A stretch of DNA of 64,000 bases, from contig DXDM01000056.1 in the NCBI GenBank assembly GCA_019115485.1, forward strand, positions 1 through 64,000, given 5' to 3'. Below the pieces are notes generated by a model. The model was not told where the DNA came from. It saw only the letters and a list, made by a program, of their open reading frames with translations, and did no database searches. Made by a program: the position numbers and the translations under genes. The DNA is from Candidatus Barnesiella excrementavium (GTDB lineage: Bacteria; Bacteroidota; Bacteroidia; Bacteroidales; Barnesiellaceae). Shown here in pieces: positions 1 through 51,377 of this stretch. Positions within the stretch are counted from its first letter, which is position 1. The number at the start of each line of letters is the position of its first letter.

Positions 1-243
1 TCTACAAGAATGATTGTCAATCACCCAGTTCTCTTTTTGTTTACCCTGTGGCATCGAACGACCGTCAAACTCTATCACATCAAGCGGTTGGGCAAAATCA
101 ATCTCATGCCCTTGTACTGCACCAGCTTGACCGTCATCACGTACAATACGAATCCACTCTTTAGGATTATCTAAATCAATGCCACCAGGGCATAATCCTC
201 CGTTCTTGCAACTGACAGCAAGAAGAAAAACTCGCTTTTTCAT
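1..243 (-). CDS. Dual-OB-domain-like protein, 3' part outside window
   Basis: Eighty-one codons are visible and the frame runs off the left edge. The protein opens with MKKRVFLLAVSCKNGG, then LCPGGIDL and EWIRIVR, a hydrophobic strand and a Cys-containing loop followed by a Trp. From memory this matches the small family annotated as 'dual OB domain-containing protein', often found beside DUF488 genes; its biochemical role is unknown. The ATG shares bases with the stop of the upstream DUF488 gene (TAATG), which suggests translational coupling in one operon. Composition is AT-rich like the other cassette genes. The fold assignment is the weak part; that this is a real coding region is well supported by its conserved look and the coupled start. 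Confidence 0.7.
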   Translation of the reverse strand, partial: MKKRVFLLAVSCKNGGLCPGGIDLDNPKEWIRIVRDDGQAGAVQGHEIDFAQPLDVIEFDGRSMPQGKQKENWVIDNHSCR

Positions 244-707
244 TATAGGTTTCCTCCGAATTTAATATCGTTTCTAAATTTATTGAGAAGCATCTCGCTA
301 AGAACTCTTCTGTGACACTTTTCGTTTGTCGGCTCAGAGCATAGCAGCACAACATTTTCATACTTTCCAAACTCTTCAACAAAGTTGGAAATATTGGATT
401 TGTATTCAAGCTGTTTCCTATATGCCACCTCAAATAATTTGTAATCCTTACTCATAGGACAAGACTTATCTCTAACCTCTTTCAGTAATTCCTTAGTCGG
501 TGCCAAGTCCACACGGTGTTTATATTTACAGCCATTTGCCAATTCTGAAAGGAAATACGGTAAATCTTGCTCAAATGCAAAGCGTGATAATTGCCCATTA
601 GGATTAAGTCGTACATCCACAAGGCAATCAATATTGTTCGCTTTGATGATTCCAAAAAACTCTTTTGCAGTTTTTTTTGTGAAGCCAATGTTGAATAAGT
701 TAATCAT
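243..707 (-). CDS. DUF488 family protein, short paralogue
   Basis: A 154-residue protein with both DUF488 signatures: LFNIGFTKKTAKEFF at the N-terminus leading to CLVDVRLNPNGQ, and LLCSEPTNEKCHRR near the C-terminus. The conserved Cys-Ser-Glu and Cys-His-Arg groups of the family are present; DUF488 proteins have no established activity. The reading frame is open back to 818, but the ATG at 707 gives the usual family start just before the first beta-strand, and upstream codons overlap the previous gene. It overlaps the upstream DUF488 gene by 8 nt and its stop overlaps the next start, so the three are translated as one unit. It differs strongly from its neighbour paralogue, so this is not a recent duplication. 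Confidence 0.85.
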   Translation of the reverse strand: MINLFNIGFTKKTAKEFFGIIKANNIDCLVDVRLNPNGQLSRFAFEQDLPYFLSELANGCKYKHRVDLAPTKELLKEVRDKSCPMSKDYKLFEVAYRKQLEYKSNISNFVEEFGKYENVVLLCSEPTNEKCHRRVLSEMLLNKFRNDIKFGGNL

Positions 708-1476
708 AGTTCTCTGTATTATTGTAGTTAAACCTTTTCCATCCGTGTAATAAATTCCAATATCTATCGCAGAAGTCATAAATCTTTTCTTGCTCGGTAT
801 TTCCGAAATAATTATCAAGGATTTCTTCCTTGAACATCATATTCAGCACTTTTTTCTTTTCGCAAACAAAAATCTCAAGATGCTTATCCAAATCCGAGTT
901 TGATATAAAGTGAATTCCACCATCAGGCTTTTCGACAATATGCCTTACTTCAAGCCAATCACCGTATCTTTGTTCAAGTGCTTTGCTCACCAAAAAATAT
1001 CTGTGACAATCCATTGGTTTCTTTTCACTGCACATCAAGCACAATGTGTAATTTTTGTCATATGCATCTTCAATGCGTTTTAATCCGCTTACAAAATGCT
1101 CATCATGCCTAAATTTTCGAAAATCTACAATCTCATCTGAGCCAAGCAATTCTGTTTTCTCTGGACGATAACTTTTTGCTATGGGGAAAACCTCTTGCTC
1201 GAAGAATATGTCCGCTGCCTTAGAAAATACCTCTTGCTGACTATTGGCTTTGGCACCAATTTCCGGCATATTCATGTATGGTATGCCCAATTCCTTTCCT
1301 GCAATTTTCATATTGTCTGCATTACATTGTGGATATTGCTTGGAGAAGGGAACAGAACGCACATCTACTAAAAAGTTTATTCCATATCCTTTTAATGTTT
1401 GAAACATACGCTCAATTTCAATGTCAAAACCATTTTGAAACAGCGTATAACCCATTGTATAGATAATTTTCTTCAT
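700..1476 (-). CDS. DUF488 family protein, long paralogue
   Basis: A 258-residue protein. It begins KKIIYTMGYTLFQNGF, followed by FLVDVRSVPFSKQYP, and carries LCLMCSEKKPMDCHRYF at about residues 150-170, the conserved DUF488 pattern with CSE and CHR groups. About 70 extra C-terminal residues, charged and Tyr/Trp-rich, are absent from the shorter paralogue next door. It starts 2 nt after the stop of the FkbH-like gene and overlaps the following DUF488 gene, which supports one transcript. A pair of divergent DUF488 proteins encoded side by side suggests a heteromer, but that is inference. No catalytic function can be stated for the family. Confidence 0.85.
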   Translation of the reverse strand: MKKIIYTMGYTLFQNGFDIEIERMFQTLKGYGINFLVDVRSVPFSKQYPQCNADNMKIAGKELGIPYMNMPEIGAKANSQQEVFSKAADIFFEQEVFPIAKSYRPEKTELLGSDEIVDFRKFRHDEHFVSGLKRIEDAYDKNYTLCLMCSEKKPMDCHRYFLVSKALEQRYGDWLEVRHIVEKPDGGIHFISNSDLDKHLEIFVCEKKKVLNMMFKEEILDNYFGNTEQEKIYDFCDRYWNLLHGWKRFNYNNTENYD

Positions 1477-1478
1477 AA

Positions 1479-2999
1479 TTACAACAATTTCAATCTTGTA
1501 TTATTTTTCAACAGTTCTATACTACGCAAATCAAATTCTGAACTATAATATGAGTCAAAGTAATATACATTGAAAGCCTTTTTGCTTTTATGTATATTAA
1601 GAAGATGATTATAAAAACAAGGCTCATTCTCAAAATGCCTAAAAAAGACATCGCAACCTACAGGAACACTATCACAACTATCAGTAAATACACACCCATA
1701 ATATTTGTTTATAAACTCCTGAATTTTTGTATTCTCATCATTGAATTGACAGGCAAACTGAAAACATTTTCTGGGAAAACTCTTTAATAAATATATGATA
1801 ATAAATTCTTCTAAGCCAATCTCAAAATATCGACAACTTACTGCCCAATTAAGAATACTGCATATTGAACCATCTATGTCTGAATATGTAATGGCAGAAC
1901 AAATACCTAAATTATCACCATTTGAACGATACATTTCAAAGAATAACGATTTGGTATTAGAAAAATCTATCGGTTCAGATACAAGCTTAAATTGGTTTGA
2001 TTTTGCATACAGTTTTCTTGCCTGAATCTGGTTTATATCATCACTAACCTTGACAAGTAACTGCGGGAGATAACTTTTCTCACGTTCTTGCTGTAAGACC
2101 GCATATAATCGTTTACGACTTCTTGATTTCAATGAAAGCTCAAATCTATCAAAAGCACCACAAGTTAAAAGCAAAGTTAGAAGTTCATCATGATTATCCC
2201 AATCGGGCACAAACACCTCAGGCAAATTCTGTCTGACTTCTTCACGAACAATTTGGTTATCATCAATAAAGACACAAGCACTTGTTAATATTGATAACTT
2301 TTGTGCTATGGCTTTTATGTTTTTGCTCTTATCGTTATAATTAGCGACAATACAGTCTATTTGGCCTTTAAGAGGAAATTCCTCCTCATTGAGTCGGTCA
2401 ATAGCGGACAGAACTTTTTCAATGTCATTGCGTGAGCATATTGCAATGTACAATCCCTGTTCTTTCGCTAAGGCTTGTATGAAACGCATAAATCCTACAA
2501 ACGGAATTGCATCATTTGAACGGAGACTTTGTTTAATTGCATCGATACCATCTTCTGCAAGGGTTCCTTTCCATATCGTATCGTCTAGGTCAAGAATGAT
2601 AGCTTTATACAAGGTCTTTGACTTGCATATAATCTGTGAAATGATTTGCATAACCAGTATTCCGACAATGGAAATTCCCGTTTTACTTGACAAATATATT
2701 GTCGATACAAAGTTTTCTATCTTGTATCCAAAAAATTCATCATTTGCGTTCCCTCTAATAGTATATTCTACTTGTATTTCATCTATGGTATCTTGCCCGT
2801 TGGATATTGTCACTTCAAAACCATACGTTTGCAATTTGCGAAGAAGAAAGGACAAATCATGGTCGTCTGCAGCAATAAAACCTGCAACACCACCTATATT
2901 AACTATGTAATTGCTTGTGATGAAGTTGCGAAATTGCCTTACATAGTTGTTGATGTAAACATCTATGTATTTGTTAACTGGTGACTCTATTTCTGTCAT
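1479..2999 (-). CDS. FkbH-like HAD-IIIC phosphatase with GNAT-like C-terminus
   Basis: A 506-residue protein. Residues 1-130 match no family I recognise. Residues about 131-260 form a HAD core: motif I AIILDLDDTIWKGTLAEDG (D137 and D139), a Ser at AICSRND, and motif III VFIDDN. The C-terminal third carries LNWAVSCRYFEIGLEEF, resembling the GNAT-like part of FkbH proteins. Known FkbH enzymes make glyceryl-acyl carrier protein for polyketides, but no carrier protein or synthase is visible here. The frame also has a TTG at 3005; the ATG at 2999 is the likelier start, with GGGAGA upstream. It is first in a four-gene AT-rich operon with two DUF488 genes and sits behind a long structured leader. 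Confidence 0.8.
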   Translation of the reverse strand: MTEIESPVNKYIDVYINNYVRQFRNFITSNYIVNIGGVAGFIAADDHDLSFLLRKLQTYGFEVTISNGQDTIDEIQVEYTIRGNANDEFFGYKIENFVSTIYLSSKTGISIVGILVMQIISQIICKSKTLYKAIILDLDDTIWKGTLAEDGIDAIKQSLRSNDAIPFVGFMRFIQALAKEQGLYIAICSRNDIEKVLSAIDRLNEEEFPLKGQIDCIVANYNDKSKNIKAIAQKLSILTSACVFIDDNQIVREEVRQNLPEVFVPDWDNHDELLTLLLTCGAFDRFELSLKSRSRKRLYAVLQQEREKSYLPQLLVKVSDDINQIQARKLYAKSNQFKLVSEPIDFSNTKSLFFEMYRSNGDNLGICSAITYSDIDGSICSILNWAVSCRYFEIGLEEFIIIYLLKSFPRKCFQFACQFNDENTKIQEFINKYYGCVFTDSCDSVPVGCDVFFRHFENEPCFYNHLLNIHKSKKAFNVYYFDSYYSSEFDLRSIELLKNNTRLKLL

Positions 3000-3252
3000 A
3001 ATCAAAACATTGTCTCCCAGTCCCCGAAGACCTCATATTATTTTACACCAAAGCGTGGAACTGCGATGCCACGTCTGATTGGAGGTCGTAGGAAAAACCT
3101 GTGCACGGATATGGAAATAGCAGCCCACGCTATAGCGTGAGAACCACTATGCCATCTCTTGTGCACAATTGAAAATTTCCTACGTTTCCAATCACAAGAC
3201 AAGCATAACGCTTCTTTGATTTATCGTATGTCTGGCAAGAGTCGCCTCCAGC
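3000..3252 (-). ncRNA. Structured 5' leader RNA of the FkbH/DUF488 operon
   Basis: About 250 nt lie between the promoter and the FkbH-like start without an ORF, and they fold strongly. The outer stem pairs 3076-3083 with 3187-3194 (8 bp) and continues, past a small internal loop, as 3087-3095 with 3176-3184 (9 bp). Inside it, GTGCAC at 3101-3106 can pair with GTGCAC at 3161-3166, and the 14-base palindrome CACGCTATAGCGTG occupies 3126-3139. Smaller hairpins lie at 3054-3073 (CGTGG/CCACG) and 3201-3213 (AAGC/GCTT). It could be a cis-regulatory leader or a small RNA that is itself part of the system. I cannot match it to a named RNA family. The pairings are read directly; the function is unknown. 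Confidence 0.6.
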
Positions 3253-3258
3253 CAAATA

Positions 3259-3266
3259 CAAAGATA
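3259..3266 (-). promoter_or_regulatory. Promoter -7 element for FkbH/DUF488 operon
   Basis: TATCTTTG on the minus strand matches the Bacteroidota -7 consensus TAnnTTTG. It would start transcription near 3252, about 250 nt before the first gene, and so defines the leader RNA. Confidence 0.6.
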
Positions 3267-3534
3267 GCGAATTTCCTTGATACACAATCTTATTTAGATA
3301 AAAATCAATGATTTGATACTTATTTTATTATCTGTTTGTACCCATATTGGGTCATGATAGACTTAATATGTTGATTTTCACGAATACTCAATAATTCCCC
3401 GACAATACTAATCGCTTTCCACATATTCAATAATATTGCAAGAAGAATAATGTTTAAGCGTATTCAATCCCATTTAAAGGGCTGGCGAATAAGTCCGTGT
3501 GGGAACAAAGCGGGAACAATAGGTACAAAATAAA
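3267..3534. other. AT-rich gap between cassette and tRNA-Leu
   Basis: No gene is visible. The stretch is AT-rich and contains GGGAACAA twice in close succession around 3502-3519. It separates the cassette promoter from the tRNA terminator and may include a junction of inserted DNA, but I see no recombinase gene and no copy of the tRNA 3' end here. Confidence 0.4.
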
Positions 3535-3570
3535 ATCGGCTAAGTATTGATATTCAATTACTTAGCCGAT
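3535..3570 (-). terminator. Rho-independent terminator of tRNA-Leu
   Basis: ATCGGCTAAGTA at 3535-3546 pairs perfectly with 3559-3570 (12 bp, 12-nt loop). On the minus strand the stem is followed by a T-rich run (TTTTATTTTG), directly after the tRNA gene. Confidence 0.8.
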
Positions 3571-3577
3571 TCCCTCG

Positions 3578-3661
3578 TACCCAGAGCCGGGATCGAACCG
3601 GCATGGAGGTTAATCCACTGGTGTTTGAGACCAGCGCGTCTACCGATTCCGCCATCTGGGC
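3578..3661 (-). tRNA. tRNA-Leu (anticodon CAA)
   Basis: The minus strand reads as a complete 84-nt class II tRNA. It has a 7-bp acceptor stem (GCCCAGA with TCTGGGT), a D arm with GGTAGACGCG, an anticodon stem CTGGT/ACCAG around the loop CTCAAAC giving anticodon CAA, a long variable arm and a T loop GGTTCGATCCC. CCA is not encoded. It decodes UUG. Its promoter lies just upstream and a strong terminator just downstream. Its 3' end faces the AT-rich FkbH/DUF488 cassette, the usual side for insertion of integrative elements. Confidence 0.95.
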
Positions 3662-3674
3662 AGAAAAGACGCGG

Positions 3675-3682
3675 CAAAGGTA
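3675..3682 (-). promoter_or_regulatory. Promoter -7 element for tRNA-Leu
   Basis: TACCTTTG on the minus strand fits TAnnTTTG and lies 14 nt before the first tRNA base, a suitable distance for a tRNA transcript. Confidence 0.6.
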
Positions 3683-3804
3683 AGGATAGATTTCGAATGC
3701 TCCAAATATTCTCTGTTTTTTTTCAAAAAAAGTTATTCCACACATCTTTCTAAGGAAAAATAAATTACATTAGCGGAAGAATTAACATAAAAAATGGCAC
3801 AATC

Positions 3805-37563: not shown

Positions 37564-39945
37564 TTAATTGACCACCAAAATTTTGGTCACCACACCCGAT
37601 TGCTTACCCGTAGCCGTCGACGAGGCAAAGACCAGATAGACGCCTGTCTTCACCCGGTTACCCTTGCGGTCGCGACCGTCCCACGAAATCTGTCCACCAT
37701 TGGAATAGCCTTCGAAAAACAGGTTTCCAGCCACGTCAGTAATCTTGACCAGACTGTTGTCCATCAGACCGGTTACCGATATCCACCCCTCATAGTCGGG
37801 ACGTACAGGATTGGGGAAGGCATAGACACTGCTGTAATCCTCCGAAGCCTGTACCGCATCGGAACGATAGGCAGCCAGTCCGCTGGTCGTTCCCACATAA
37901 GCTATACCCGTGACAGGGTCGACAACCACCTCGGTAATGAAATTGGAAGGCAGCCCGCTATTTTCCGTCGTAAAGTGTTCCAGTATTTCAGACCCGTCGT
38001 CACTCACTACATAAAGCCCCGACTCCCGGGTGCCTATCCATTTGCGGTTGGCTCCATCGACAAAGATGTCGGAAATCTCAATATTTTGCAGCAGATAGTC
38101 GGCATTGTCGGTACCGTCGTTACGGGCTATCTTGATGCGCGTACAACGGAAATTGTCATTGAACACATTGTTGGGATTCGTAATGACAATCGGTCCTACC
38201 GAAGTTCCTATCCATATCTGCCCGTTATTATCCTCGGCAATGCAAGTATAGTAGTTGGGGGTGAATGTCTTGTTATCCTGGTCGACAAAAGATACAAAAT
38301 TTCTAGTCTTGTCATCGTCCGTCGTGTTGTAAGTCCCCTTGTCGTCAAAGGCAAAAACCGATCCTCCCCAAGAGCCCTTGACTATCCACTTAGCCGTAGA
38401 GTGTTTGGGGATAAGCAACTTGGCATATTTATTATTCTCAATTTCAGAATAATCAAACTGATACCAGTCGTTCACCGTCAGTTCATCGGTACTGACAGAC
38501 TGCTTTTCCCGAGGTAACATGCAAAGAGAAGGGATACCTTTCGATACAACCCATAAGTTCTTGTTATCATCAAATGCTGCATAAGGAACACTTAAAGCCC
38601 AATTATAGGTAAAAGGCGAATTCAGATGCGTATAATGTCCCACACATTCATTATCCGTAAATTTGTACATTCCCTCAAACCAGGTTCCCACATAAAAAGT
38701 TGATGGATCATCAGGGTCAAAAGCCAGATTATAACTCGCATATAAATATTTGTCATGTTTGTTATTGACCAAAGGAACTTCTCCCAGATCAAGTATGGAC
38801 CAATCGTTTTGATCCAATACGCTTATTCGAGTCTTTACATACTGCTCTTCCATTCCTATACGCGGACCTGTATTACTTACATATAACTTGTTGTCATTGA
38901 TAACCAGATTCCACGGATCCGATACATTCGGCACATCAGGTAAAAAAGGCTCCTTCAACATAGTCAATTGGTTACCCTCCATTTTGAAATGACACAATCC
39001 ATACTCACCCAACGCCCATATCGATTTATCCTTTTCATATGACGACGTCTGTACGTCGACCAAATATTCCGACTGATTCTGGAAATTGAATATATTTTCA
39101 AACTGCAAGGCACCGTTCTCAATTTCGGGCTTACAGAAGGCTACATAAACCAAACCTCTGAGTATAAAACCATCGTAATACTTTTCTACACAACGAACAC
39201 CCATACTCAATATACCTAACAAAGGAAAACCTTCGCTTTCTATATCATAGAAATACAGATCACCATTTTGGGAATAGAATAAATACTTATCATTAAACGG
39301 CTCCAAGTCATATATCACACTCCCCGATACCGATTTCAATATATTCCAACTGGAGAAATCATATTTTATCGCATCACTCTCAATATAATAGATAGCCTCA
39401 TCAGTCGCTATAAACCAGTAATTGTTACAAGCTCCTATCTTATTGATTTTTTGTTCATAATTATACGATTCGCTCACCTCGTATTTCTCATCGTTCAAAA
39501 CCACGATACCGAAATCGGTAGCCAAATAAATACGGTTACCATAAAAATTCACGTCATTGACAGCTTTTGAAGAGGTCATGATAACATTCTTGATATCGGG
39601 TATGTTATATAACTTACCATTATCATACAGAATATCTATATTCGAGTTGGTATATACGACTACCAGATAATTTTTGTCGTAGTTGTAATAAATATTGGAT
39701 ACTCCTGTGTCACTCAATCTGTTATTCTTGTTATAGGCCTCTAACTCATCTGTAACCTTATCGTAACAGAAAAGGGAAACACCCGACACAAAATAGACTC
39801 TATCGCCTGCATCTATGACTTTTACAGGGTCACCTGTCGAAGAGTAGATCTGCCAATTACCCACTGCCAGTTGAGCATGAGTCAAAAACGTAAGTGACCA
39901 TACTGCAAGAGTTACTAAAACCAATATTTTTCTTGACATACCCAT
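37564..39945 (-). CDS. porZ: PorZ-like beta-propeller protein of the type IX secretion pathway
   Basis: A 793-residue secreted protein. Residues 1-22 are a signal peptide (ILVLVTLAVWSLTFLTHAQ). The body consists of beta-propeller blades in two sets, with repeats such as YLATDFGIVVLND, IWIGTSVGPIVI, KWIGTRESGLYVVSDDG and YVGTTSGLAAYRSD. The C-terminus (VYAFPNPVRPDYEGWISVTG to GVYLVFAS) is an Ig-like sorting-type domain. This matches PorZ, the surface protein that delivers A-LPS to the type IX sortase in Porphyromonas; a general 'two-component regulator propeller' protein is the alternative. The start could be ATG 39945 or 39939. It lies directly after rdgB. The N-terminal two thirds is noticeably AT-richer than neighbouring genes. 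Confidence 0.7.
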   Translation of the reverse strand: MGMSRKILVLVTLAVWSLTFLTHAQLAVGNWQIYSSTGDPVKVIDAGDRVYFVSGVSLFCYDKVTDELEAYNKNNRLSDTGVSNIYYNYDKNYLVVVYTNSNIDILYDNGKLYNIPDIKNVIMTSSKAVNDVNFYGNRIYLATDFGIVVLNDEKYEVSESYNYEQKINKIGACNNYWFIATDEAIYYIESDAIKYDFSSWNILKSVSGSVIYDLEPFNDKYLFYSQNGDLYFYDIESEGFPLLGILSMGVRCVEKYYDGFILRGLVYVAFCKPEIENGALQFENIFNFQNQSEYLVDVQTSSYEKDKSIWALGEYGLCHFKMEGNQLTMLKEPFLPDVPNVSDPWNLVINDNKLYVSNTGPRIGMEEQYVKTRISVLDQNDWSILDLGEVPLVNNKHDKYLYASYNLAFDPDDPSTFYVGTWFEGMYKFTDNECVGHYTHLNSPFTYNWALSVPYAAFDDNKNLWVVSKGIPSLCMLPREKQSVSTDELTVNDWYQFDYSEIENNKYAKLLIPKHSTAKWIVKGSWGGSVFAFDDKGTYNTTDDDKTRNFVSFVDQDNKTFTPNYYTCIAEDNNGQIWIGTSVGPIVITNPNNVFNDNFRCTRIKIARNDGTDNADYLLQNIEISDIFVDGANRKWIGTRESGLYVVSDDGSEILEHFTTENSGLPSNFITEVVVDPVTGIAYVGTTSGLAAYRSDAVQASEDYSSVYAFPNPVRPDYEGWISVTGLMDNSLVKITDVAGNLFFEGYSNGGQISWDGRDRKGNRVKTGVYLVFASSTATGKQSGVVTKILVVN

Positions 39946-39948
39946 CAA

Positions 39949-40530
39949 CTATAATGTATTCAAAAATTCCGACAATTTCTTTACAGCTATCGCCCGATGA
40001 CTTATTTTATTCTTCTCTTCCTCTCCCATTTGAGCAAAAGTCTCATGGTAGCCATCGGGGACAAAAATCGAATCATAACCAAACCCCGAGGTTCCTCGAC
40101 GCTCTTCTATAATTCGCCCGGCTATCTCTCCATAGAAAAGATGTTCTTTGCCTCCTAAAATCAACGCTATGCAGGTGACAAAACTTGCCTTACGATTGGT
40201 ATTATCACCCAAATTGAACAGTAACTTGTCGATATTACGCTCCGAATTGGCAGGTTCTCCCGCATACCGGGCCGAATAGACACCCGGCTCTCCATGCAAT
40301 GCCTCTACCAGCAGACCCGTATCGTCGGCAAAACAGTCGTATTCATATTTTTCTTTCACATAACGAGCTTTTTGCAGGGCATTCCCCTCAAACGTATCGG
40401 CCGTTTCAGGTATGTCATCGTGACACGCTATATCGTTCAAACTGAGTATCTCTATCTTGTCTCCAACTATGGCTGTTATCTCTTCCAGTTTATGTTTATT
40501 ATTTGTGGCAAAAACCAGTTTCCTTTTCAT
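39949..40530 (-). CDS. rdgB: XTP/dITP diphosphatase (Ham1/RdgB)
   Basis: This enzyme hydrolyses ITP, dITP and XTP to monophosphates, keeping deaminated purines out of nucleic acids. The 193-residue protein starts [17 protein letters not shown] and has [34 protein letters not shown] and the C-terminal SGFGYDSIF...ISHRAIA motifs. It is transcribed from a divergent promoter region shared with the phosphoethanolamine transferase gene, and its stop lies 3 nt before the porZ-like start, so the two are probably one transcript. Confidence 0.95.
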
Positions 40531-40540
40531 TTTTTATTTC

Positions 40541-40548
40541 TATCTTTG
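40541..40548 (+). promoter_or_regulatory. Promoter -7 element for phosphoethanolamine transferase
   Basis: TATCTTTG on the plus strand, 88 nt before the ATG at 40636, within the divergent region. Confidence 0.5.
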
Positions 40549-40623
40549 CATTTGCTAATGCAAAATCATCACCTTTTCAACGAATATATAAAAAGCCGTC
40601 AATCGTCTTTAATATCATCTTTA

Positions 40624-40631
40624 CAAAGATA
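40624..40631 (-). promoter_or_regulatory. Promoter -7 element for rdgB
   Basis: TATCTTTG on the minus strand, about 94 nt before the rdgB ATG. The two opposed -7 elements face each other, so their transcripts would overlap by about 70 nt at the 5' ends. Confidence 0.5.
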
Positions 40632-40635
40632 AAGA

Positions 40636-42159
40636 ATGAAGAAAATATCTGAAATTATTAACGTAAAACTTTATGTTTTAATTGCATTATTAGCACTTTT
40701 TTATGGCTTTGCCTTTATCTTGTCCGACTTTTACGACTCACCTTTCGACAGTATATATGACTTGCTGATTCTCTCTTTACAATGGGCAGTGGTAGTTGCT
40801 GCTACCTTCGGATTTCTTTATCTCATCGTCCTCAACAAGTATGTTTTTGCCATACTCTTTCCCATACTTACCGTCAGTTGCAGCATTCTCGCTTACATGA
40901 GATATGCCCTGCAAATATCGCTCACCCCCATGCTCATCGACCTGGCTTTTGTTAATGATGCAAGAACCTGGTTTGAAAATTTCAATCTGCAATTACTCCT
41001 CTGGATTGTTTTTTCTTTGGCTATTTCAATAGGCTGTGTGTTCTACCGTTGGAAATACATCAAAGTTCAATACCCTGTTCTACACCTATTTATTGCCGTT
41101 TGCATCATTTTACTGACCAACAGCTGGTCATTCAAAAGACCTGTTTCACAACGCATTCCTTACGTTATTTATTATAGCATAAAAGATTACTTGGACAGTA
41201 GGAAAATTATACAAGAGAACCGAGAGACCTTCATAAAAAACGATGCTTATACCTCTGTCGACTCTCTTAACGTAGTACTTGTTCTGGGGGAATCATTACG
41301 TGCCGACCACCTTGCCTTGAACGGATACACGAGAAATACAACTCCCTTCCTGTCCCGTGATTCCAACGTTATATCCTACCCTCACATCTACACCATTCCA
41401 TACTATACGCACACCAGCATTCCCCACCTGCTCACCCGGGCCGACAGCATTTCGCCCGACAGAGCCTATGAAGAGGAGTCGTTCATCTCTCTTTTCAAAC
41501 AAGCCGGGTATAAAACCTGCTGGATTGCCAATCAAGAGTCGGTACCTACTTACGTCTATTTCATGAACGAATGCGATACACTCATTTATGTGAATGGAGG
41601 AAAATCACTTTATATCTTCGACAAATGGTTGGACGGTGATTTACTACCCGACTATCGAAATGCTCTCGATCCTGAAAATCCTAAAACACTCACCATTCTA
41701 CACACCATAGGATCTCACTGGTGGTACAATGCACACTACCCCGATTCGTTTGAAATCTTCAAACCCGTGATAAAAAGTCGGGTAATAAAAACAAATACCC
41801 AGGAAGAGATGATCAACTCCTACGACAATACGATTCTTTACACCGACTTTGTCATTCACCAGTTTATCAATGAACTCAAAGAGCGATGTGCCATACTCTT
41901 CTACATCTCGGACCACGGAGAATCTTTGGGAGAAAATGGATATTATCTGCATGGAGAAGACCGCCCCGAATTACATAATCCGGCCTGTTTCATCTGGTAC
42001 TCCACAGCCTATCAAAAAAGATTTCCCGAACGGATAGAACAGTTGAAACAACACCGAAACGACCGGTATCTGACCGATTTCCTATTTCATACAATTCTCG
42101 ATGCGGCCAGCATCGAGACATCTTACAAGAACAAACAGTTAAGCCTTATCAATCCATAG
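40636..42159 (+). CDS. Phosphoethanolamine transferase (EptA-type sulfatase fold)
   Basis: A 507-residue inner-membrane enzyme. About five membrane helices occupy residues 10-190, followed by a periplasmic sulfatase-fold domain. The metal and nucleophile motifs are VLGESLRADHLALNGY (acidic metal ligand), SYPHIYTIPYYTHTSIPHLL with the conserved Thr region, TLIYVNGGKSLYI and FYISDHGESLGENGYYLHG (Asp-His metal ligands). It probably moves phosphoethanolamine from phosphatidylethanolamine to lipid A or another glycan, which lowers negative charge and can give resistance to cationic peptides. It is followed 4 nt later by an acyltransferase gene; both are AT-richer than most of the window. Confidence 0.88.
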   Translation: MKKISEIINVKLYVLIALLALFYGFAFILSDFYDSPFDSIYDLLILSLQWAVVVAATFGFLYLIVLNKYVFAILFPILTVSCSILAYMRYALQISLTPMLIDLAFVNDARTWFENFNLQLLLWIVFSLAISIGCVFYRWKYIKVQYPVLHLFIAVCIILLTNSWSFKRPVSQRIPYVIYYSIKDYLDSRKIIQENRETFIKNDAYTSVDSLNVVLVLGESLRADHLALNGYTRNTTPFLSRDSNVISYPHIYTIPYYTHTSIPHLLTRADSISPDRAYEEESFISLFKQAGYKTCWIANQESVPTYVYFMNECDTLIYVNGGKSLYIFDKWLDGDLLPDYRNALDPENPKTLTILHTIGSHWWYNAHYPDSFEIFKPVIKSRVIKTNTQEEMINSYDNTILYTDFVIHQFINELKERCAILFYISDHGESLGENGYYLHGEDRPELHNPACFIWYSTAYQKRFPERIEQLKQHRNDRYLTDFLFHTILDAASIETSYKNKQLSLINP

Positions 42160-42163
42160 CCGT

Positions 42164-43174
42164 ATGAAACGATTCATATGGATAGACTATGCCAAATCAA
42201 TAGGTATATATTTTGTAGTATTGGGACATACCCATCTATATACTCCACTGAGCAATGTCATCTATACATGGCTCATGCCTGTATTTTTCTTCATATCGGG
42301 GTATCTCTTCTCTTTTGAAAAAAACACTTCACTCAAAACTTTTGCCTGGAAAAGATTCAAAAGCCTGCTGATACCCTATCTTTGGATAAACTTAATCACC
42401 TATCTGTTCTGGCTTTTCGTAGGACGAAAATTTGGCGATGACTCCAACCTGGACATCTGCTGGTATTCCCCCCTCATCAATACGCTACTGGGAAACGGAA
42501 AACAGATGATACACAATATTCCCACGTGGTTCTACATCTGTCTGTACGGCCTGGAAATGTTTTATTACATATTCTTCAAGCACGTTAAAAAAAGATATAT
42601 AGGACTAATTATCTTGATTATAGCAGGATATCTCAACTATACTTTCAACCCTTATGTATTACCTTTCAGTCTCAATACCGCACTGGTAGGCATGATATTC
42701 TATGGTTTCGGATATGAACTTAAAAATCGAAAATACATATTCAAATCCAACATCATCTACATCATATTCTCCCTGTTACTGATCATCGTCGTAGCCCATT
42801 TCAACGGAAGAATAAACATGTATAAAAACTATTATGGCAATTATCCCCTTTTCCTGGTAGGAGCTTTCAGCGGAATCTACCTGATAGCCGCTTTATCTAC
42901 CTTATTATCAAATATCTTCAAAGAGAGAAAATGGATTACTTATGTTTCAAAAAATACAATTATAATCAGTGGATTTCACCTGCTCATGTTCTCTTTTATG
43001 AAAGGCTTCCTGGTATTTGTTCTACACATTCCCATTGCATTTCTCTATGAGAAAATACTTATCAATGTTCTTTTCGCAGCCGTGAGCCTCGTTTTATGCC
43101 TGCCTGTCGCTTACATAATCAACCGTTACGTTCCCTTTATCGTCGGAAAGAAAAAAAGCCCTCTACGGGGCTAA
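42164..43174 (+). CDS. Acyltransferase-3 family membrane protein
   Basis: A 336-residue polytopic protein with about ten membrane helices. The N-terminus MKRFIWIDYAKSIGIYFVVL with the following GH (catalytic His of the R-x10-H motif) and MPVFFFISGYLFSF identify the OafA/NodX-like acyltransferase 3 family, which acetylates or acylates surface sugars and lipids. It starts 4 nt after the phosphoethanolamine transferase gene, so the two probably form one surface-modification operon. The last codons contain the terminator of the converging YitT gene. Confidence 0.9.
   Translation: MKRFIWIDYAKSIGIYFVVLGHTHLYTPLSNVIYTWLMPVFFFISGYLFSFEKNTSLKTFAWKRFKSLLIPYLWINLITYLFWLFVGRKFGDDSNLDICWYSPLINTLLGNGKQMIHNIPTWFYICLYGLEMFYYIFFKHVKKRYIGLIILIIAGYLNYTFNPYVLPFSLNTALVGMIFYGFGYELKNRKYIFKSNIIYIIFSLLLIIVVAHFNGRINMYKNYYGNYPLFLVGAFSGIYLIAALSTLLSNIFKERKWITYVSKNTIIISGFHLLMFSFMKGFLVFVLHIPIAFLYEKILINVLFAAVSLVLCLPVAYIINRYVPFIVGKKKSPLRG
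43150..43172 (-). terminator. Terminator of YitT gene within acyltransferase 3' end
   Basis: On the minus strand AGCCC and GGGCT (43157-43161 with 43168-43172) pair over a 6-nt loop and are followed by seven T residues. It overlaps the coding end of the converging acyltransferase gene. Confidence 0.6.
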
Positions 43175-43176
43175 TT

Positions 43177-44046
43177 TCAAGTCTTTATCTTGTCGAAACC
43201 TTCGCCATAGACGCCCACGACGTTCGATTGTGAGATAAAGGCCTTGGGGTCTATCGATTTGATCAACCGGAATATCTTGACCGACTCGTTGCGCTTAGCC
43301 AGAATCATCAGCACCTTCTTGGGCTGTTTGGAATACCACCCCATACCATCAAGCACGGTTACACCCCGGTGTATATCCTGATTGACATGTGTGGCTATCT
43401 CTTCATACTTGTCCGACAAAATCAATATCTGTACCGACTGGCGCTTACCGTTGATGACCATATCCATCGTGTAGCTCATCACACCCATCACCACATAACC
43501 GAAAATCATCTTCTCTATACTGTGGAACAGCACATACGAACTGGCAATAATCAGGAAGTCGATATACATCATCATCTTGGCAAACGAGATGTTTTTGTAC
43601 TTGTTGACGATGGCGGCTATGATATCGGTTCCTCCCGTACTACCGTTCGACACAAATACCAAACCTACTCCCAGACCACACAAGATACCACCGATAATGG
43701 CCGACATGAAGGGTTGTTCCTCGACCAGGGAATGAGGTATGAACTCGGGCAATATACCCAGGAAAAACGAACACATGAACACACTGAAAATCGTGCGCAC
43801 GAAAAATTTCAATCCCAATATCTTGATTGCAGCCAACAACAGTATTACGTTGATGGTAAAATATGAAGCCGATACCGGTATTTTCGTTCCATAATAGATT
43901 AAGGCCGCAATACCGGTCACACCGCCGGTAGTAATTTCGTTAGGCAGCAAAAATCCCACCCAACCCAGCGCATACAGCAATAAGCCGAATATGATGACCA
44001 TGTAGTCTTTTACGGCATACAGCACACTGTTAAAAGGCAATCGCAT
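43177..44046 (-). CDS. YitT family membrane protein (DUF161/DUF2179)
   Basis: A 289-residue protein with five or six membrane helices in residues 10-195 and a soluble C-terminal DUF2179 domain. Typical parts are LYALGWVGFLLPNEITTGGV, GLGVGLVFVSNGSTGGTDII and, in the C-terminal domain, RGVTVLDGMGWYSKQPKKVL and IKSIDPKAFIS. YitT proteins are widespread with no firmly assigned transport activity. It stands alone on the minus strand between the acyltransferase and leuS, with its own terminator. Confidence 0.92.
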   Translation of the reverse strand: MRLPFNSVLYAVKDYMVIIFGLLLYALGWVGFLLPNEITTGGVTGIAALIYYGTKIPVSASYFTINVILLLAAIKILGLKFFVRTIFSVFMCSFFLGILPEFIPHSLVEEQPFMSAIIGGILCGLGVGLVFVSNGSTGGTDIIAAIVNKYKNISFAKMMMYIDFLIIASSYVLFHSIEKMIFGYVVMGVMSYTMDMVINGKRQSVQILILSDKYEEIATHVNQDIHRGVTVLDGMGWYSKQPKKVLMILAKRNESVKIFRLIKSIDPKAFISQSNVVGVYGEGFDKIKT

Positions 44047-47950: not shown

Positions 47951-48328
47951 ATATATATTCCTTTTTATTTTTTAATTTAAAATCTTTATTGTTGATGATA
48001 ATAGGCTGTTGATAGCAAGGATAACTTCTTGTTAAAAGTATTGCTTTTTATCTTATCAACCTTTTGTTCGGGGTTATCGAGGTGTTGTCAACGACATTAT
48101 ATTTTTATAATGAGTAGCTTAACCTCCCTATCAACGCCCTGTTTACAAACTGCAAAGTTAATAACTTTATTCTATTTGCATGATTGATAAATAGATATTT
48201 TAAGGTGGATACATCAACTAAAAACTCGTGGCTTTATTATTTGCATTTTGAAGATAAGGGGTTGTATAAAGATAATATTTTGATTTCAAAATTTTGAATG
48301 CCTTTTTATCACTTCTTTTTGTAACCTA

Positions 48329-48359
48329 TTATCCACATTTGTCCACATACTTATTCACG
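48329..48359 (+). promoter_or_regulatory. Tandem DnaA-box cluster
   Basis: Three 9-mers in the same orientation with 10- and 12-nt spacing: TTATCCACA, TTGTCCACA, TTATTCACG. The first is the canonical DnaA box; the others differ by one or two bases. Confidence 0.65.
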
Positions 48360-48417
48360 GTGTTGTTTACAGAGCAGGGGAGGGACAATATGAATTGTCT
48401 CTGTCGGTTGTATGTAT

Positions 48418-48425
48418 TATCTTTG
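48418..48425 (+). promoter_or_regulatory. Promoter -7 element for TrmH-like gene
   Basis: TATCTTTG fits TAnnTTTG and lies 26 nt before the ATG at 48451. Confidence 0.55.
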
Positions 48426-48450
48426 TCGTTACTTGTAAAGACAGTTGTTT

Positions 48451-48981
48451 ATGAAGAAAAAGAGTATTCTCGACTTGCACCGTATTTCGCAGGAGGAGTT
48501 TAAACATCTCGAAAAGATACCGTTGGTAGTTGTGCTGGACAATGTGCGCAGCCTGAACAATATCGGGTCGGTATTCCGCACGGCCGATGCCTTCAAGGTC
48601 GACTGTATATACCTGTGCGGCATTACGGCTACACCGCCTCATACCGATATACACAAGACTGCCTTGGGAGCCGAGGATAGTGTAGACTGGATTTATGAGC
48701 CAGATACCTGTACCGTTGTTGATAAGTTGTTGGCTGCCGGTTACGAGGTCTATGCCATCGAGCAGGTAGAGGGGAGTATCAGCCTCACTGACATAGAGTT
48801 GGACAAACACAAGCGTTATGCCGTCATCTTGGGTAACGAGGTGAAGGGAGTTCAACAGTCGGTGGTTGACAAGTGTACGGGAAGCATCGAGATACCCCAA
48901 TTCGGAACCAAGCACTCGTTGAATGTATCGGTGACTGCCGGTTTGGTAATCTGGGATTTTTTCAAACAGTTGGGATTATAG
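48451..48981 (+). CDS. TrmH (SpoU) family RNA 2'-O-methyltransferase
   Basis: A 176-residue SPOUT methyltransferase. Motif 1 is VVLDNVRSLNNIGSVFRTADAF, motif 2 YAVILGNEVKGV and motif 3 IEIPQFGTKHSLNVSVTAGLVI, the trefoil-knot SAM and RNA 2'-O-ribose methylation site. It lacks the N-terminal substrate-binding domain of RlmB-type enzymes, so tRNA or rRNA specificity cannot be read. The frame begins at a TTG at 48445; the ATG at 48451 is preferred. It lies between the two AT-rich origin-like segments and overlaps the end of the converging DUF4294 gene by 6 nt. Confidence 0.9.
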   Translation: MKKKSILDLHRISQEEFKHLEKIPLVVVLDNVRSLNNIGSVFRTADAFKVDCIYLCGITATPPHTDIHKTALGAEDSVDWIYEPDTCTVVDKLLAAGYEVYAIEQVEGSISLTDIELDKHKRYAVILGNEVKGVQQSVVDKCTGSIEIPQFGTKHSLNVSVTAGLVIWDFFKQLGL

Positions 48982-49578
48982 CGAACCTTGTTCGACCAGA
49001 ATGCAGATGCGTTCGATGGTCTTGTCTTTACCTTCGGGTTGCCAGTCGGTTTTGAGCGAAGCGCCGAACATCTTGCCGAAGAACTGCCAGAAGTTGGCTC
49101 TGAAACTGCCCAGAAATGCCTTTATCAACTCATAGGAAGACTGGTTACACTCTCTGTTAATCAATTTGATGAGCATCTTTCCCTGCGACAGGGTAAACTT
49201 TTTCAACACCGGTTTATATTGTTGGAAAACCTCTTTCTCCATGCGTTTCATATGTTCTTCGCGGGCTTCATCGTCGGGCAGAGTCTCCATATATTCATAA
49301 GTCTCTATGAAGATCGAGTAGATCAGTTTGGCGTAGGGTAGGGTCTTTTTCACATCGCGCACCGTCTTCCAGTAAAATTTTTCCTCTTTTTTGTTTTTGA
49401 ATTTTTCGGGCGGGAATACATAGAAGGTTCGCAGACCTATCATCGGTACCGTGTCGTTGTCGATGATGACTCGGTAAAAATGTTTATAGGCCGGGTGTTC
49501 TTCCTGGAATACCTGAGCCCGCAGACCCGGAACTATCAGAAAGAGAAAAAGAAACAATATGGATAATCCTCTCTTCAT
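48976..49578 (-). CDS. DUF4294 domain protein, exported
   Basis: A 200-residue protein with a signal peptide (MKRGLSILFLFLFLIVPGLRAQ) followed by a DUF4294-like body: YRVIIDNDTVPMIGLRTFYVF, YWKTVRDVKKTLPYAKLIYS, QGKMLIKLINRECNQSSYELIKAF and FRANFWQFFGKMFGASLKT. The family is restricted to Bacteroidota and has no assigned function; a periplasmic location is inferred from the signal. The frame is open to 49644 but the signal peptide fixes the start at 49578. A TACATTTG element at 49585-49592 immediately upstream would leave almost no leader. Confidence 0.88.
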   Translation of the reverse strand: MKRGLSILFLFLFLIVPGLRAQVFQEEHPAYKHFYRVIIDNDTVPMIGLRTFYVFPPEKFKNKKEEKFYWKTVRDVKKTLPYAKLIYSIFIETYEYMETLPDDEAREEHMKRMEKEVFQQYKPVLKKFTLSQGKMLIKLINRECNQSSYELIKAFLGSFRANFWQFFGKMFGASLKTDWQPEGKDKTIERICILVEQGSL

Positions 49579-49782
49579 CGGGTACAAATGTAAACCATTC
49601 GATTTTTCGATGACTATTTTTTTTACAATAATTATAATATTCACCGCTGTGAATAGCTTGTGTCGATAAGTTGTGTACAGCTGGTGAATAGAGTGGTTTA
49701 TTTTATGTGAATATTTTGGTAATCAGTAATATATGATTTGTTGATAAATGTAGATTCATTTTCATTTTTCAGGTTGAAATCT

Positions 49783-49791
49783 TGTGGATAA
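49783..49791 (-). promoter_or_regulatory. DnaA box
   Basis: TGTGGATAA is the exact complement of the canonical DnaA box TTATCCACA, in a very AT-rich intergenic stretch. Confidence 0.6.
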
Positions 49792-49911
49792 GCTATTCAT
49801 ATCTCAAAAATGGGGTTGTTCTTTTCATCTGTACATTCGCATGGTTGACAAACTATTGATAAGTAGGTTTATTTGAAAGTGTATATATTTGTTTATCAAT
49901 AGAATACAGAT

Positions 49912-49920
49912 TTATACACA
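49912..49920 (+). promoter_or_regulatory. DnaA box
   Basis: TTATACACA matches the TTATNCACA consensus exactly. Confidence 0.55.
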
Positions 49921-49982
49921 GGCTGTTTATAAATGGAAGATATATCCGTTTCACACCGTTGCGTGAAATCGTGTGGTCCATA

Positions 49983-50026
49983 TAAAAAAAAGTAGTCTTA
50001 AACTCTCCTTGCAGTTTAAGACTACT
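49983..50026 (-). terminator. Terminator of the SPFH/YidD operon
   Basis: AGTAGTCTTAAACT at 49991-50004 pairs perfectly with 50013-50026 over an 8-nt loop. On the minus strand it runs into eight or more T residues, 25 nt after the zinc-ribbon gene stop. Confidence 0.88.
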
Positions 50027-50050
50027 GGTCATGGTATGGGAATCTGTCGC

Positions 50051-50638
50051 TTAAATCAGTTGAGGCGAGGGAGTCTCGGTTTGAGCGTGAAATTCATCTA
50101 CATCGTAAGGCGATATTTGATGGGCCAAAGCCTCTTCGATCAATTCGTGGTAATTGGGTTTGGTATTCAAATATTTTCTTTCGAAGTAGTCGTATTTGAT
50201 GTAAGCCAGGAAATAATAGAATATGGCTTGCGGGTCAATCATGATGGCCGCATTGAGATATTCTATCATCTTGTCAATATCGGCACGCGGAGTCACAAAA
50301 GGTTTCTTTCCCTTTAACAGGGCCATGGCAGCCAGGTAGAAGGGTTCGGGGTTCTCAAAGTTATCCTCCATGGCCTTTTCAAAGGCAGGCAAAGCCTTGT
50401 CGTAGAGTTTCAGTTTGAGGTAACAGATACCGATCGACAGGTTGATATCCCGGTTATCGGGATTGTTTTCAAGCGTTTTCCGGTATGAATTGGCATATTT
50501 GTTCAGTTGCAAGGTTGACAAAGATGCTGCCGACTTCATAGAGGTGATGATGATGGGACTGCCACAATGCTCACACTCTTTATCTTTTGCTGCTACGGGA
50601 GCCCCGCAGTTGGGACATAACAAGCTGATTACTTCCAT
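50051..50638 (-). CDS. Zinc-ribbon protein with TPR-like helices
   Basis: A 195-residue protein. Residues 8-27 form a zinc ribbon (CPNCGAPVAAKDKECEHCGS). After a linker come TPR-like helical pairs: NKYANSYRKTLENNPDN, DINLSIGICYLKLKLYDKAL, AFEKAMEDNFENPEPFYLAA and MIEYLNAAIMIDPQAIFYYF. It is probably a cytoplasmic scaffold; no enzymatic motif is visible. It is the last gene of a five-gene minus-strand operon, 4 nt after the four-helix membrane protein, and is followed by a strong terminator. Confidence 0.8.
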   Translation of the reverse strand: MEVISLLCPNCGAPVAAKDKECEHCGSPIIITSMKSAASLSTLQLNKYANSYRKTLENNPDNRDINLSIGICYLKLKLYDKALPAFEKAMEDNFENPEPFYLAAMALLKGKKPFVTPRADIDKMIEYLNAAIMIDPQAIFYYFLAYIKYDYFERKYLNTKPNYHELIEEALAHQISPYDVDEFHAQTETPSPQLI

Positions 50639-50642
50639 AAGT

Positions 50643-51377
50643 TTATTTCTTTGAGTGGTTAGAGAGATAATTCAGTTGGTTGAGATATTGTTTCACTTGG
50701 TTTTCCATACTTTTTTTCAACTTTGCCAACTCTTCTTCGCCGAGGTTGTCGCCGATTTCCATGTCGTTCATCTCGTTGATGATGTTTTTTAAGAGAGATT
50801 GACCGTTGGCACTTTCGATGCTGTATGGGGGCAGATATTTGATTTTTTTGATCAGCAGGTCAAACTCTTTCCATACCGAGGTAAAATCGACGGGGGCCGT
50901 ACTCAGTGCATTTGACAGTCGATTGATGGATAAATTCAATCGGTCTACCACGTCGTTTATCGAGTAGAGTCGCTGTTGTTGGGCATTCATCTCTTTTTGA
51001 TAGGACTTGTCGGTATCTTTTACCAAGGCGGCAACCACCACCCAGAGGAAGAGAAGCACGATGTGCACCGACAGGTATATGTTGTAAGAGACGAAATTGC
51101 GGAGAAGCAGGGAATACAACAGCAGCCAGATGATACCGGCTATCAGGTAGTAGGAGAGGGTTATCCACAACGAAGACGTGAAAGCTACCGATGTATTTTC
51201 CTTTTTACCGACCGAGTAGAGATAGAGGAAGAAGAAAGACTCTACGACCAGCACGGTGTAGACCAGGTTGGTGTAGAACAAGGCACCTGCACCCTCGGGT
51301 TTGAAAAGGAAAAACAGTGCAACGACTATGATAGCCCCGATAACGGGCAATATGATATTTTTGACAGTCAGTTTCAT
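50643..51377 (-). CDS. Four-helix membrane protein with cytoplasmic tail
   Basis: A 244-residue protein I do not recognise. Four hydrophobic helices are clear at about residues 8-25, 33-55, 68-90 and 98-117, followed by a ~125-residue hydrophilic helical tail with coiled-coil character (DVVDRLNLSINRLSNAL near the start, KLKKSMENQVKQYLNQLNYL at the end). It sits between the SPFH-GYF gene (19 nt upstream) and the zinc-ribbon gene (4 nt downstream), so it could be the membrane partner of the SPFH protein. That is inference from position. Confidence 0.72.
   Translation of the reverse strand: MKLTVKNIILPVIGAIIVVALFFLFKPEGAGALFYTNLVYTVLVVESFFFLYLYSVGKKENTSVAFTSSLWITLSYYLIAGIIWLLLYSLLLRNFVSYNIYLSVHIVLLFLWVVVAALVKDTDKSYQKEMNAQQQRLYSINDVVDRLNLSINRLSNALSTAPVDFTSVWKEFDLLIKKIKYLPPYSIESANGQSLLKNIINEMNDMEIGDNLGEEELAKLKKSMENQVKQYLNQLNYLSNHSKK

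What the first reader, a model, noticed from the sequence alone, without database searches (positions are those of the whole stretch)
1..3266. FkbH-like + two DUF488 + dual-OB cassette: candidate uncharacterised system
Four minus-strand genes are coupled by 2-nt spacing, an 8-nt overlap and a TAATG overlap, so they are made together. The mix is unusual: a HAD-IIIC phosphatase with a GNAT-like tail, normally linked to glyceryl-carrier-protein chemistry, two divergent DUF488 proteins that both keep the CSE and CHR groups, and a small protein starting like dual-OB nucleic-acid-binding proteins. No carrier protein or synthase is present. AT-rich composition and a tRNA neighbour suggest mobility. 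A nucleic-acid modification or conflict role is inference.
Basis: partly seen in the sequence, partly recalled or inferred. Interest (0 to 1): 0.8.

Follow-up and report, generated by a model that had tools for sequence, protein, structure and literature searches.

The report
Mobile DUF488 operon with FkbH enzyme
Four genes that travel together on small mobile islands in some Bacteroidota combine a catalogued candidate anti-virus trio with an unexpected enzyme related to those that load small sugar-derived acids onto carrier proteins.

Summary
Four tightly coupled minus-strand genes lie at window 1-3005: an FkbH-like HAD protein, two DUF488 proteins with intact motifs, and a dual-OB (DuOB) protein cut by the contig start. 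The 7 relatives found whose contigs reach far enough carry the same four genes in the same order (one FkbH frame is split). The FkbH-like proteins form their own clade (support 1.0), and 0 of 27 ordinary FkbH loci have DUF488 or DuOB within 1.5 kb. The cassette sits on an integrative island at tRNA-Leu: another contig of this genome has the duplicated tRNA end, a tyrosine integrase and a YhcG nuclease, and 4 of 6 same-genus relatives inspected look uninterrupted there.

The trio is not new: PADLOC lists it as candidate PDC-M45. The FkbH-like fourth gene, absent from PADLOC, appears to be the new part. One related trio carries an ACP-LnmK fusion instead. I read the operon as a mobile conflict/defence variant; the chemistry is inference. 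In passing: its leader belongs to a strongly covarying RNA family without a match in Rfam.

The parts
1479..3005 (-). FkbH-like protein (508 aa from TTG 3005; 506 aa from the likelier ATG 2999): N-terminal alpha/beta domain without a PDB match (about residues 1-130), HAD-IIIC phosphatase core, GNAT-like C-terminal part
   Evidence: (motifs DLDDT, CSRN, K226, IDDN, SNQF, SCR)
700..1476 (-). DUF488-B (258 aa), CSE...CHR intact; PADLOC PDC-M45B 88.3 bits
243..707 (-). DUF488-C (154 aa), CSE...CHR intact; PADLOC PDC-M45C 119.9 bits; PF22751 DUF488-N3a 41.1 bits
1..243 (-). DuOB protein, first 81 residues only (cut by contig start); PF22557 67.8 bits; PADLOC PDC-M45A 37.1 bits
3048..3217 (-). structured leader RNA of the operon (core of a conserved 5' UTR family; full leader about 3000-3260)
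3259..3266 (-). TATCTTTG at the start of the leader, resembling the Bacteroidetes -7 box TAnnTTTG (consensus recalled)
   Evidence: sequence
3577..3661 (-). tRNA-Leu(CAA), attachment gene of the island; its 3' end (3577-3585, 9 nt exact; 14 nt with one mismatch) recurs at the other island end (L195:2696-2704)

Best explanation
The locus is a mobile four-gene operon: a PDC-M45-type candidate defence trio (DuOB plus two DUF488 proteins with intact motifs) to which a distinct FkbH-like enzyme has become a fixed fourth part in one Bacteroidota lineage. It is carried on integrase-bearing islands at tRNA genes.

Most likely working, step by step: (1) the four genes are made together from one leader-bearing message (arrangement shown, transcription not); (2) DuOB binds the target, most likely nucleic acid (family knowledge, not tested); (3) the DUF488 pair does cysteine-dependent chemistry on nucleic-acid ends, bases or nucleotides (inferred from the intact CSE...CHR and from recalled literature); (4) the FkbH-like protein supplies or removes a phosphate or small acyl group through its intact HAD motifs and its conserved SCR-containing C-terminal part (inferred). 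The result would be modification or processing of foreign nucleic acid or of a signalling nucleotide that blocks phages or other mobile elements.
For: Operon and unit: same order in the 7 complete relatives found, and L042 agrees up to its contig end. Specific partnership: the 8 cassette FkbH proteins tested are monophyletic, support 1.0; ordinary FkbH loci 0 of 27 with DUF488/DuOB within 1.5 kb. Candidate defence trio: PADLOC PDC-M45A/B/C; a trio also lies near HORMA, AAA ATPase and TcmP genes on an Agrobacterium plasmid. Mobility: uninterrupted site in 4 of 6 relatives, att duplication, integrase, and a YhcG nuclease (PADLOC PDC-S02, 1.5e-127) on the same island; a 99.06%-identical 6,073-bp block with integrase and cassette at two different tRNA genes. 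Catalytic motifs kept.
Against: No anti-phage test of this operon appears in anything I read. In the scan of 77 neighbours against PADLOC, 53 families matched, but only YhcG was traced to a protein; the others shown (among them PDC-S13 1.6e-117, a Type I specificity subunit, PDC-S05, PDC-S09, IetA) were not placed, and 9 of 10 singly scanned neighbours had no match, so defence-island clustering is unproven. The trio does without FkbH in all 29 regions fetched without FkbH as query. Relatives of DUF488-C lie beside uvrA or uvrB in 3 of 7 plasmid regions read, which points to DNA repair as an alternative. The FkbH-like protein misses the curated FkbH cut-off, so its substrate cannot be assumed.
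Confidence: 0.5

Rival explanations
1. DNA-damage repair or tolerance cassette: the DUF488 proteins and DuOB recognise and clean damaged DNA ends or adducts (for example aldehyde- or acyl-phosphate-derived), and the FkbH-like protein removes a phosphate or an acyl adduct.
For: DUF488-C relatives sit next to uvrB in two plasmids, which also carry a formaldehyde-sensitive repressor or S-(hydroxymethyl)glutathione dehydrogenase gene, and next to uvrA, frmR and S-formylglutathione hydrolase genes in a third.
Against: In those three regions only one DUF488 gene and no DuOB or FkbH match was found. No repair gene was recognised beside the window's cassette, though its left side is missing, and the FkbH-like gene is absent from the 8 other same-genus genomes searched.
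Confidence: 0.2
2. Acyl-carrier chemistry for a small metabolite or surface modification: the FkbH-like enzyme loads glycerate on a carrier encoded elsewhere, and the DUF488/DuOB proteins are passengers or regulators.
For: [quoted passage not shown] In G018 an ACP-LnmK fusion overlaps the DuOB gene of a related trio.
Against: Neighbours of the cassette differ between relatives, and no carrier family is among the 25 Pfam families shown (of 121 matched) for 77 neighbours. The trio is usually without any acyl enzyme (28 of 29 regions without an LnmK match, 29 of 29 without FkbH).
Confidence: 0.15
3. The four genes are a chance cluster on a hypervariable tRNA island.
For: The island carries other cargo, and two same-genus relatives have different genes at the same tRNA.
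Against: Same order in Bacteroidales, Tangfeifania and Chitinophagaceae records at 43-79% FkbH identity.
Confidence: 0.03

Closest known systems
PDC-M45 (PADLOC phage-defence candidate; DuOB + two DUF488)
   Same: All three component models match the window's proteins; the order B-C-DuOB is also found in several trio loci.
   Different: The window's operon has a fourth, FkbH-like gene with no PADLOC match; 0 of 29 DUF488 regions fetched without FkbH as query have it.
DUF488-centred nucleic-acid-modifying conflict systems of the RapZ-C/DUF488/DUF4326 clade (Burroughs and Aravind 2023, recalled; paper not held)
   Same: DUF488 proteins with conserved Cys, DuOB partner, plasmid or island location; DUF4326 next to a DUF488-C relative on two plasmids.
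   Different: I recall no FkbH-like partner in that work but could not check it; if it is there, the fourth gene is already described.
FkbH-like glyceryl-ACP synthases (polyketide, tetronate pathways)
   Same: HAD-IIIC motifs, SNQF and SCR motifs of the C-terminal part kept; TIGR01686 matches at 1.8e-28.
   Different: Below the TIGR01686 cut-off; separate clade with long stem; N-terminal domain without a PDB match; none of the four genes is a carrier protein or synthase.
BF1531 of Bacteroides fragilis (PDB 3slr)
   Same: Best solved relative; the HAD part aligns at 8.1e-27.
   Different: The sequence match covers profile positions 115-294 only; the N-terminal and C-terminal parts are not matched. 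Its gene context was not looked at.

Membership tests
PDC-M45 | component A (DuOB) | tested here: met
   PDLC04653 6.5e-10, 37.1 bits on an 81-aa fragment; PF22557 above cut-off. PADLOC was not run on the full-length DuOB of cassette relatives.
PDC-M45 | components B and C (two DUF488) | tested here: met
   PDLC04657 1.2e-25 and PDLC04658 1.7e-35
PDC-M45 | protects against phage | not testable with these tools
   needs an experiment; the term PDC-M45 gave 0 papers
FkbH (TIGR01686) | score above curated cut-off 146.65 | tested here: not met
   99.6 bits
FkbH (TIGR01686) | carrier protein partner gene nearby | tested here: inconclusive
   no PP-binding match among the 4 proteins at E<=1 or among 10 proteins of relatives and of the other island half at E<=0.001; not among the 25 families shown of 121 for 77 neighbours; what follows DuOB in the window is not in the assembly
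HAD-IIIC phosphatase (TIGR01681) | score above cut-off 35.75 and four HAD motifs | tested here: met
   50.6 bits; motifs invariant in the 8 aligned copies
DUF488 (PF04343) | score above cut-off 22.2 and CSE...CHR motif | tested here: met
tRNA-integrating island | tyrosine integrase at one end, tRNA 3' end duplicated, uninterrupted site in relatives | tested here: met
   the two halves lie on contigs C43 and C51 and their linkage is inferred
tRNA-integrating island | excision or transfer | not testable with these tools
   needs PCR of the excised junction

The most novel reading that the evidence does not exclude
A self-contained mobile immune operon that uses acyl-phosphate/thioester-type chemistry (FkbH-like here, ACP-LnmK in a sister operon) to put a small acyl or glyceryl group on, or take it off, nucleic acids or nucleotides handled by DUF488 and DuOB proteins. 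That would be a chemistry not described for bacterial defence as far as I know.
Probability: 0.18. Interest if true: 0.88.

Novelty: new variant of a known kind. Interest (0 to 1): 0.6.

Why it matters
It adds a conserved enzyme of a recognisable chemistry type to a candidate defence trio whose activity is unknown to me, and so gives a concrete, testable substrate idea (1,3-bisphosphoglycerate or another acyl or phosphate donor). Enzymes of two families used elsewhere for loading carrier proteins are found in DUF488/DuOB operons (the FkbH-like clade; ACP-LnmK in one case). The leader found on the way is a covarying 5' UTR RNA in many Bacteroidales, unmatched in Rfam in my searches, in front of very different genes.

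Tried and rejected
Extending the window to the left: impossible, because the contig starts at window base 1 and the PF22557 search found no second DuOB piece in the assembly. Instead I found the probable other island end on contig C43.

ACP-LnmK as a general partner: rejected. The second clear LnmK locus (G303) has no DUF488 match; 1 of 29 DUF488 regions has LnmK, and that one is the query's own.

Leader as a fixed part of the cassette: rejected. It is 98-100% identical in L038 and L043 and 85-93% in L037, but not recognisable in L039, and it precedes unrelated genes elsewhere.

Fold of the FkbH N-terminal 129 residues: good model (pLDDT 79.5) but no PDB match at E<=0.001. The full-length model is weak (pLDDT 66.2), so its GNAT matches (E about 0.003-0.005) are only suggestive. 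A complex of the DUF488 pair was not predicted (no such tool).

Viral relatives: 2 FkbH relatives in IMG/VR and 2 in phage records, all at 27-30% identity; DUF488-C had none in the phage collection. The leader pattern had no exact match in IMG/VR. Literature: DUF488 with dual OB, and PDC-M45, gave 0 papers each; rhodanese with FkbH and HAD gave 0; the listings showed nothing on this operon.
Full report
What is there. The window begins at base 1 of contig C51 of a 2.68-Mb, 60-contig assembly, Bacteroidales-like by its relatives. Four minus-strand genes run from an FkbH-like gene (1479-3005) through DUF488-B (700-1476) and DUF488-C (243-707) to a DuOB gene cut at residue 81 (1-243). The starts of the FkbH-like gene and DUF488-C are better placed at ATG 2999 and ATG 707, from the leader spacing and the alignments.

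Families. Pfam gives DuOB for the fragment and DUF488 for both middle proteins. PADLOC gives PDC-M45A, B and C for the three, and nothing for the FkbH-like protein. NCBIfam gives HAD-IIIC above cut-off and FkbH below cut-off. That 'PDC' means phage-defence candidate is recalled; the tool describes PADLOC-DB as holding known and candidate defence systems.

Conservation of the unit. The FkbH-like protein alone was used as query. Among 9 genomes of its family (all one genus) only its own matches. Among 393 genomes of the order, 35 match, but only three (own, G049, G129) match strongly. A scan of GTDB contigs with a three-member alignment gave 7 loci, one of which is G049 again. Of the 8 different relatives, 7 show all four genes in the same order, and the eighth (L042) runs off its contig within DUF488-B. 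One of the 7 (L038) has the FkbH frame split in two; it is 99.06% identical to L043 over the shared element, so these two are not independent. The named records are Muribaculum, Gallipaludibacter, uncultured Bacteroidales, Tangfeifania, a Chitinophagaceae and an unassigned Bacteroidota. Apart from L038/L043, the flanking gene sets differ.

Specificity. In a tree of 35 FkbH-type proteins the 8 cassette proteins form one clade with support 1.0 and a long stem (L038 left out because of its split frame). None of 27 ordinary FkbH loci (of 33 other matches, the 27 for which DNA was given) has a DUF488 or DuOB match within 1.5 kb at E<=1e-4. Conversely, 29 DUF488 regions fetched without FkbH as query contain no FkbH match. 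21 of them have DUF488-B and DUF488-C side by side (one with a broken C frame), and 15 of these 21 have a DuOB match next to them, with profiles that were built in part from some of these loci. The 29 were picked from the best or paired hits (36 of 393 and 56 of 395 genomes with a match). So the trio is a core and the FkbH-like protein a lineage-specific fourth part.

Active sites. Both DUF488 proteins keep CSE...CHR in all cassette copies. The aligned FkbH-like proteins keep DLDDT, CSRN, the lysine of motif III, IDDN, SNQF and SCR. In the 24 ordinary FkbH proteins printed, motif I is DxDNT and SCR is kept, except for two whose C-terminal part is missing from the alignment. The first 129 residues form a confident small alpha/beta domain (pLDDT 79.5, pTM 0.76) without a PDB match at E<=0.001.

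A sister operon with carrier-protein chemistry. In G018 a DUF488-B/DUF488-C/DuOB trio is followed, through a TAATG overlap, by a 363-aa protein. Its first 70 residues resemble an acyl carrier protein (PF00550 E 0.047, below cut-off) and the rest is LnmK-like (TIGR04098 129.8 bits, cut-off 100; sequence). In a search of 384 order genomes only 3 have any match to it, one of these only weakly to the carrier part, and 1 of 3 genomes of G018's family, itself. The other clear one (G303) lies among genes that look, by eye, like polysaccharide synthesis, without a DUF488 match. It is a single case, so I treat it as a hint that acyl chemistry fits this kind of operon, not as proof.

Mobility. All 8 same-genus relatives share the tRNA-Leu neighbourhood; the far side of the tRNA was inspected in 6 (in G004 and G007 it lies at a contig end). 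In 4 of the 6, a gene that looks by eye like an ECF sigma factor, part of a SusC/FecR/sigma cluster, lies 162-343 bp from the tRNA end. A fifth (L193) has about 2 kb of other genes between, and the sixth (L189) has unrelated genes. In the window's own genome that sigma cluster is on contig C43, 95% identical to relative L188. The similarity runs up to GTACCCAGA, the tRNA-Leu 3' end, and is then followed by a tyrosine integrase and a YhcG/DUF1016 nuclease. The cassette is thus probably the other end of the same island; the middle is missing from the assembly. In L038 and L043 an identical tyrosine integrase and the cassette follow tRNA-Lys and tRNA-Arg respectively, and similarity starts inside the tRNA gene. 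That integrase is only distantly related to the one on C43 (20% over 167 residues), so the islands are of different kinds although the shared cassette DNA of window and L043 is 90-95% identical outside one divergent stretch.

Context elsewhere. DUF488-C relatives occur in 114 plasmid records. In the 7 regions read, partners were uvrB (2), uvrA (1), DUF4326 (2, one with a DuOB match), a DuOB/DUF488/DUF488 trio near HORMA and AAA genes (1), and an unannotated, by-eye trio-like set (1). Of 77 neighbours of the cassette relatives and of the island half, PADLOC matched 53 families at E<=1e-5, of which 25 are listed. YhcG alone matches 28 families; the remaining listed ones, such as PDC-S13 and a Type I specificity subunit, were not traced to a locus.

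Mechanism. Shown: co-arrangement, signs of mobility, conserved motifs, exclusive partnership of the FkbH-like clade members found. Inferred: target binding by DuOB, cysteine chemistry of DUF488, phosphate or acyl transfer by the FkbH-like protein, and a role against phages or other mobile elements. [quoted passage not shown] The idea of DNA-end processing by the DUF488 clade is recalled from Burroughs and Aravind 2023, which is not held.

Leader RNA. The operon's 5' leader is 98-100% identical, per 75-column block, from about 3236 to the start codon in L043 and L038, and 85-93% in L037, where sequence further out is unrelated. It folds with z = -4.9. Around it (2950-3800) Rfam gives only the tRNA and a weak non-overlapping hit at 3489-3572 at E<=1, and 10 further copies gave no Rfam match over the leader. 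blastn finds it in 44 of 384 order genomes, own included, and 7 plasmid records. On 28 trimmed copies (of 30 loci; L167 and L181 left out) the consensus structure forms 97.2% standard pairs, with 16 of 49 pairs changed on both sides; 0 of 500 shuffles reach either (1 of 500 for further pair types), and slid versions reach at most 48.9% (the structure came from the same alignment, which favours it). Of 29 copies, 27 have an ATG-started ORF of at least 60 aa within 100 nt downstream, 23 of them at 42-57 nt; random positions in the same loci give 3351 of 11600, and the other side 2 of 29. The genes are unrelated by eye, apart from a repeated small secreted family (7 of the copies) and a few with a similar radical-SAM-like gene further down (3). 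A covariance model finds 1-9 matches at E<=0.001 in each of 9 of 9 genus genomes (150 candidates a genome were scored, and one G004 row is the opposite strand of another). I found no description of it in passages of PMC2864571, PMC7366714 and PMC7160235 or in the listings; this is not a full literature check.

Noticed in passing
window 3048-3217 (-); L158-L187; L196-L225: Structured, covarying 5' leader RNA family, unmatched in Rfam 15, in front of very diverse genes with a spacing of 42-57 nt to an ATG in 23 of 29 copies.
   Followed up: partly
L193 (same-genus G002), same tRNA-Leu locus: The same kind of leader (73.5% over 204 nt) lies near the same tRNA in the opposite orientation, before a different gene (lipoprotein-like by eye).
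   Followed up: no
window about 1479-2060: The C-terminal part of the FkbH-like gene is only 39-76% identical to L043/L038 per 75-column block, while DNA upstream of it is 85-100% and downstream 95% identical: a mosaic allele.
   Followed up: no
L083:1633-2724 (-): ACP-LnmK fusion gene overlapping the DuOB gene of a DUF488/DUF488/DuOB trio.
   Followed up: partly
L076, L078, L080: Single DUF488-C relatives on plasmids beside uvrB or uvrA together with formaldehyde-response or related genes.
   Followed up: no
L038:7953-14022 and L043:7950-14021: Almost identical integrase-bearing island (99.06%) at tRNA-Lys in one assembly and tRNA-Arg in another; its integrase is only distantly related to the one on the window's island.
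   Followed up: yes
window 38000-44000 and 48000-51000: Further AT-rich stretches (36-45% GC) and a change of GC-skew sign near 48 kb.
   Followed up: no
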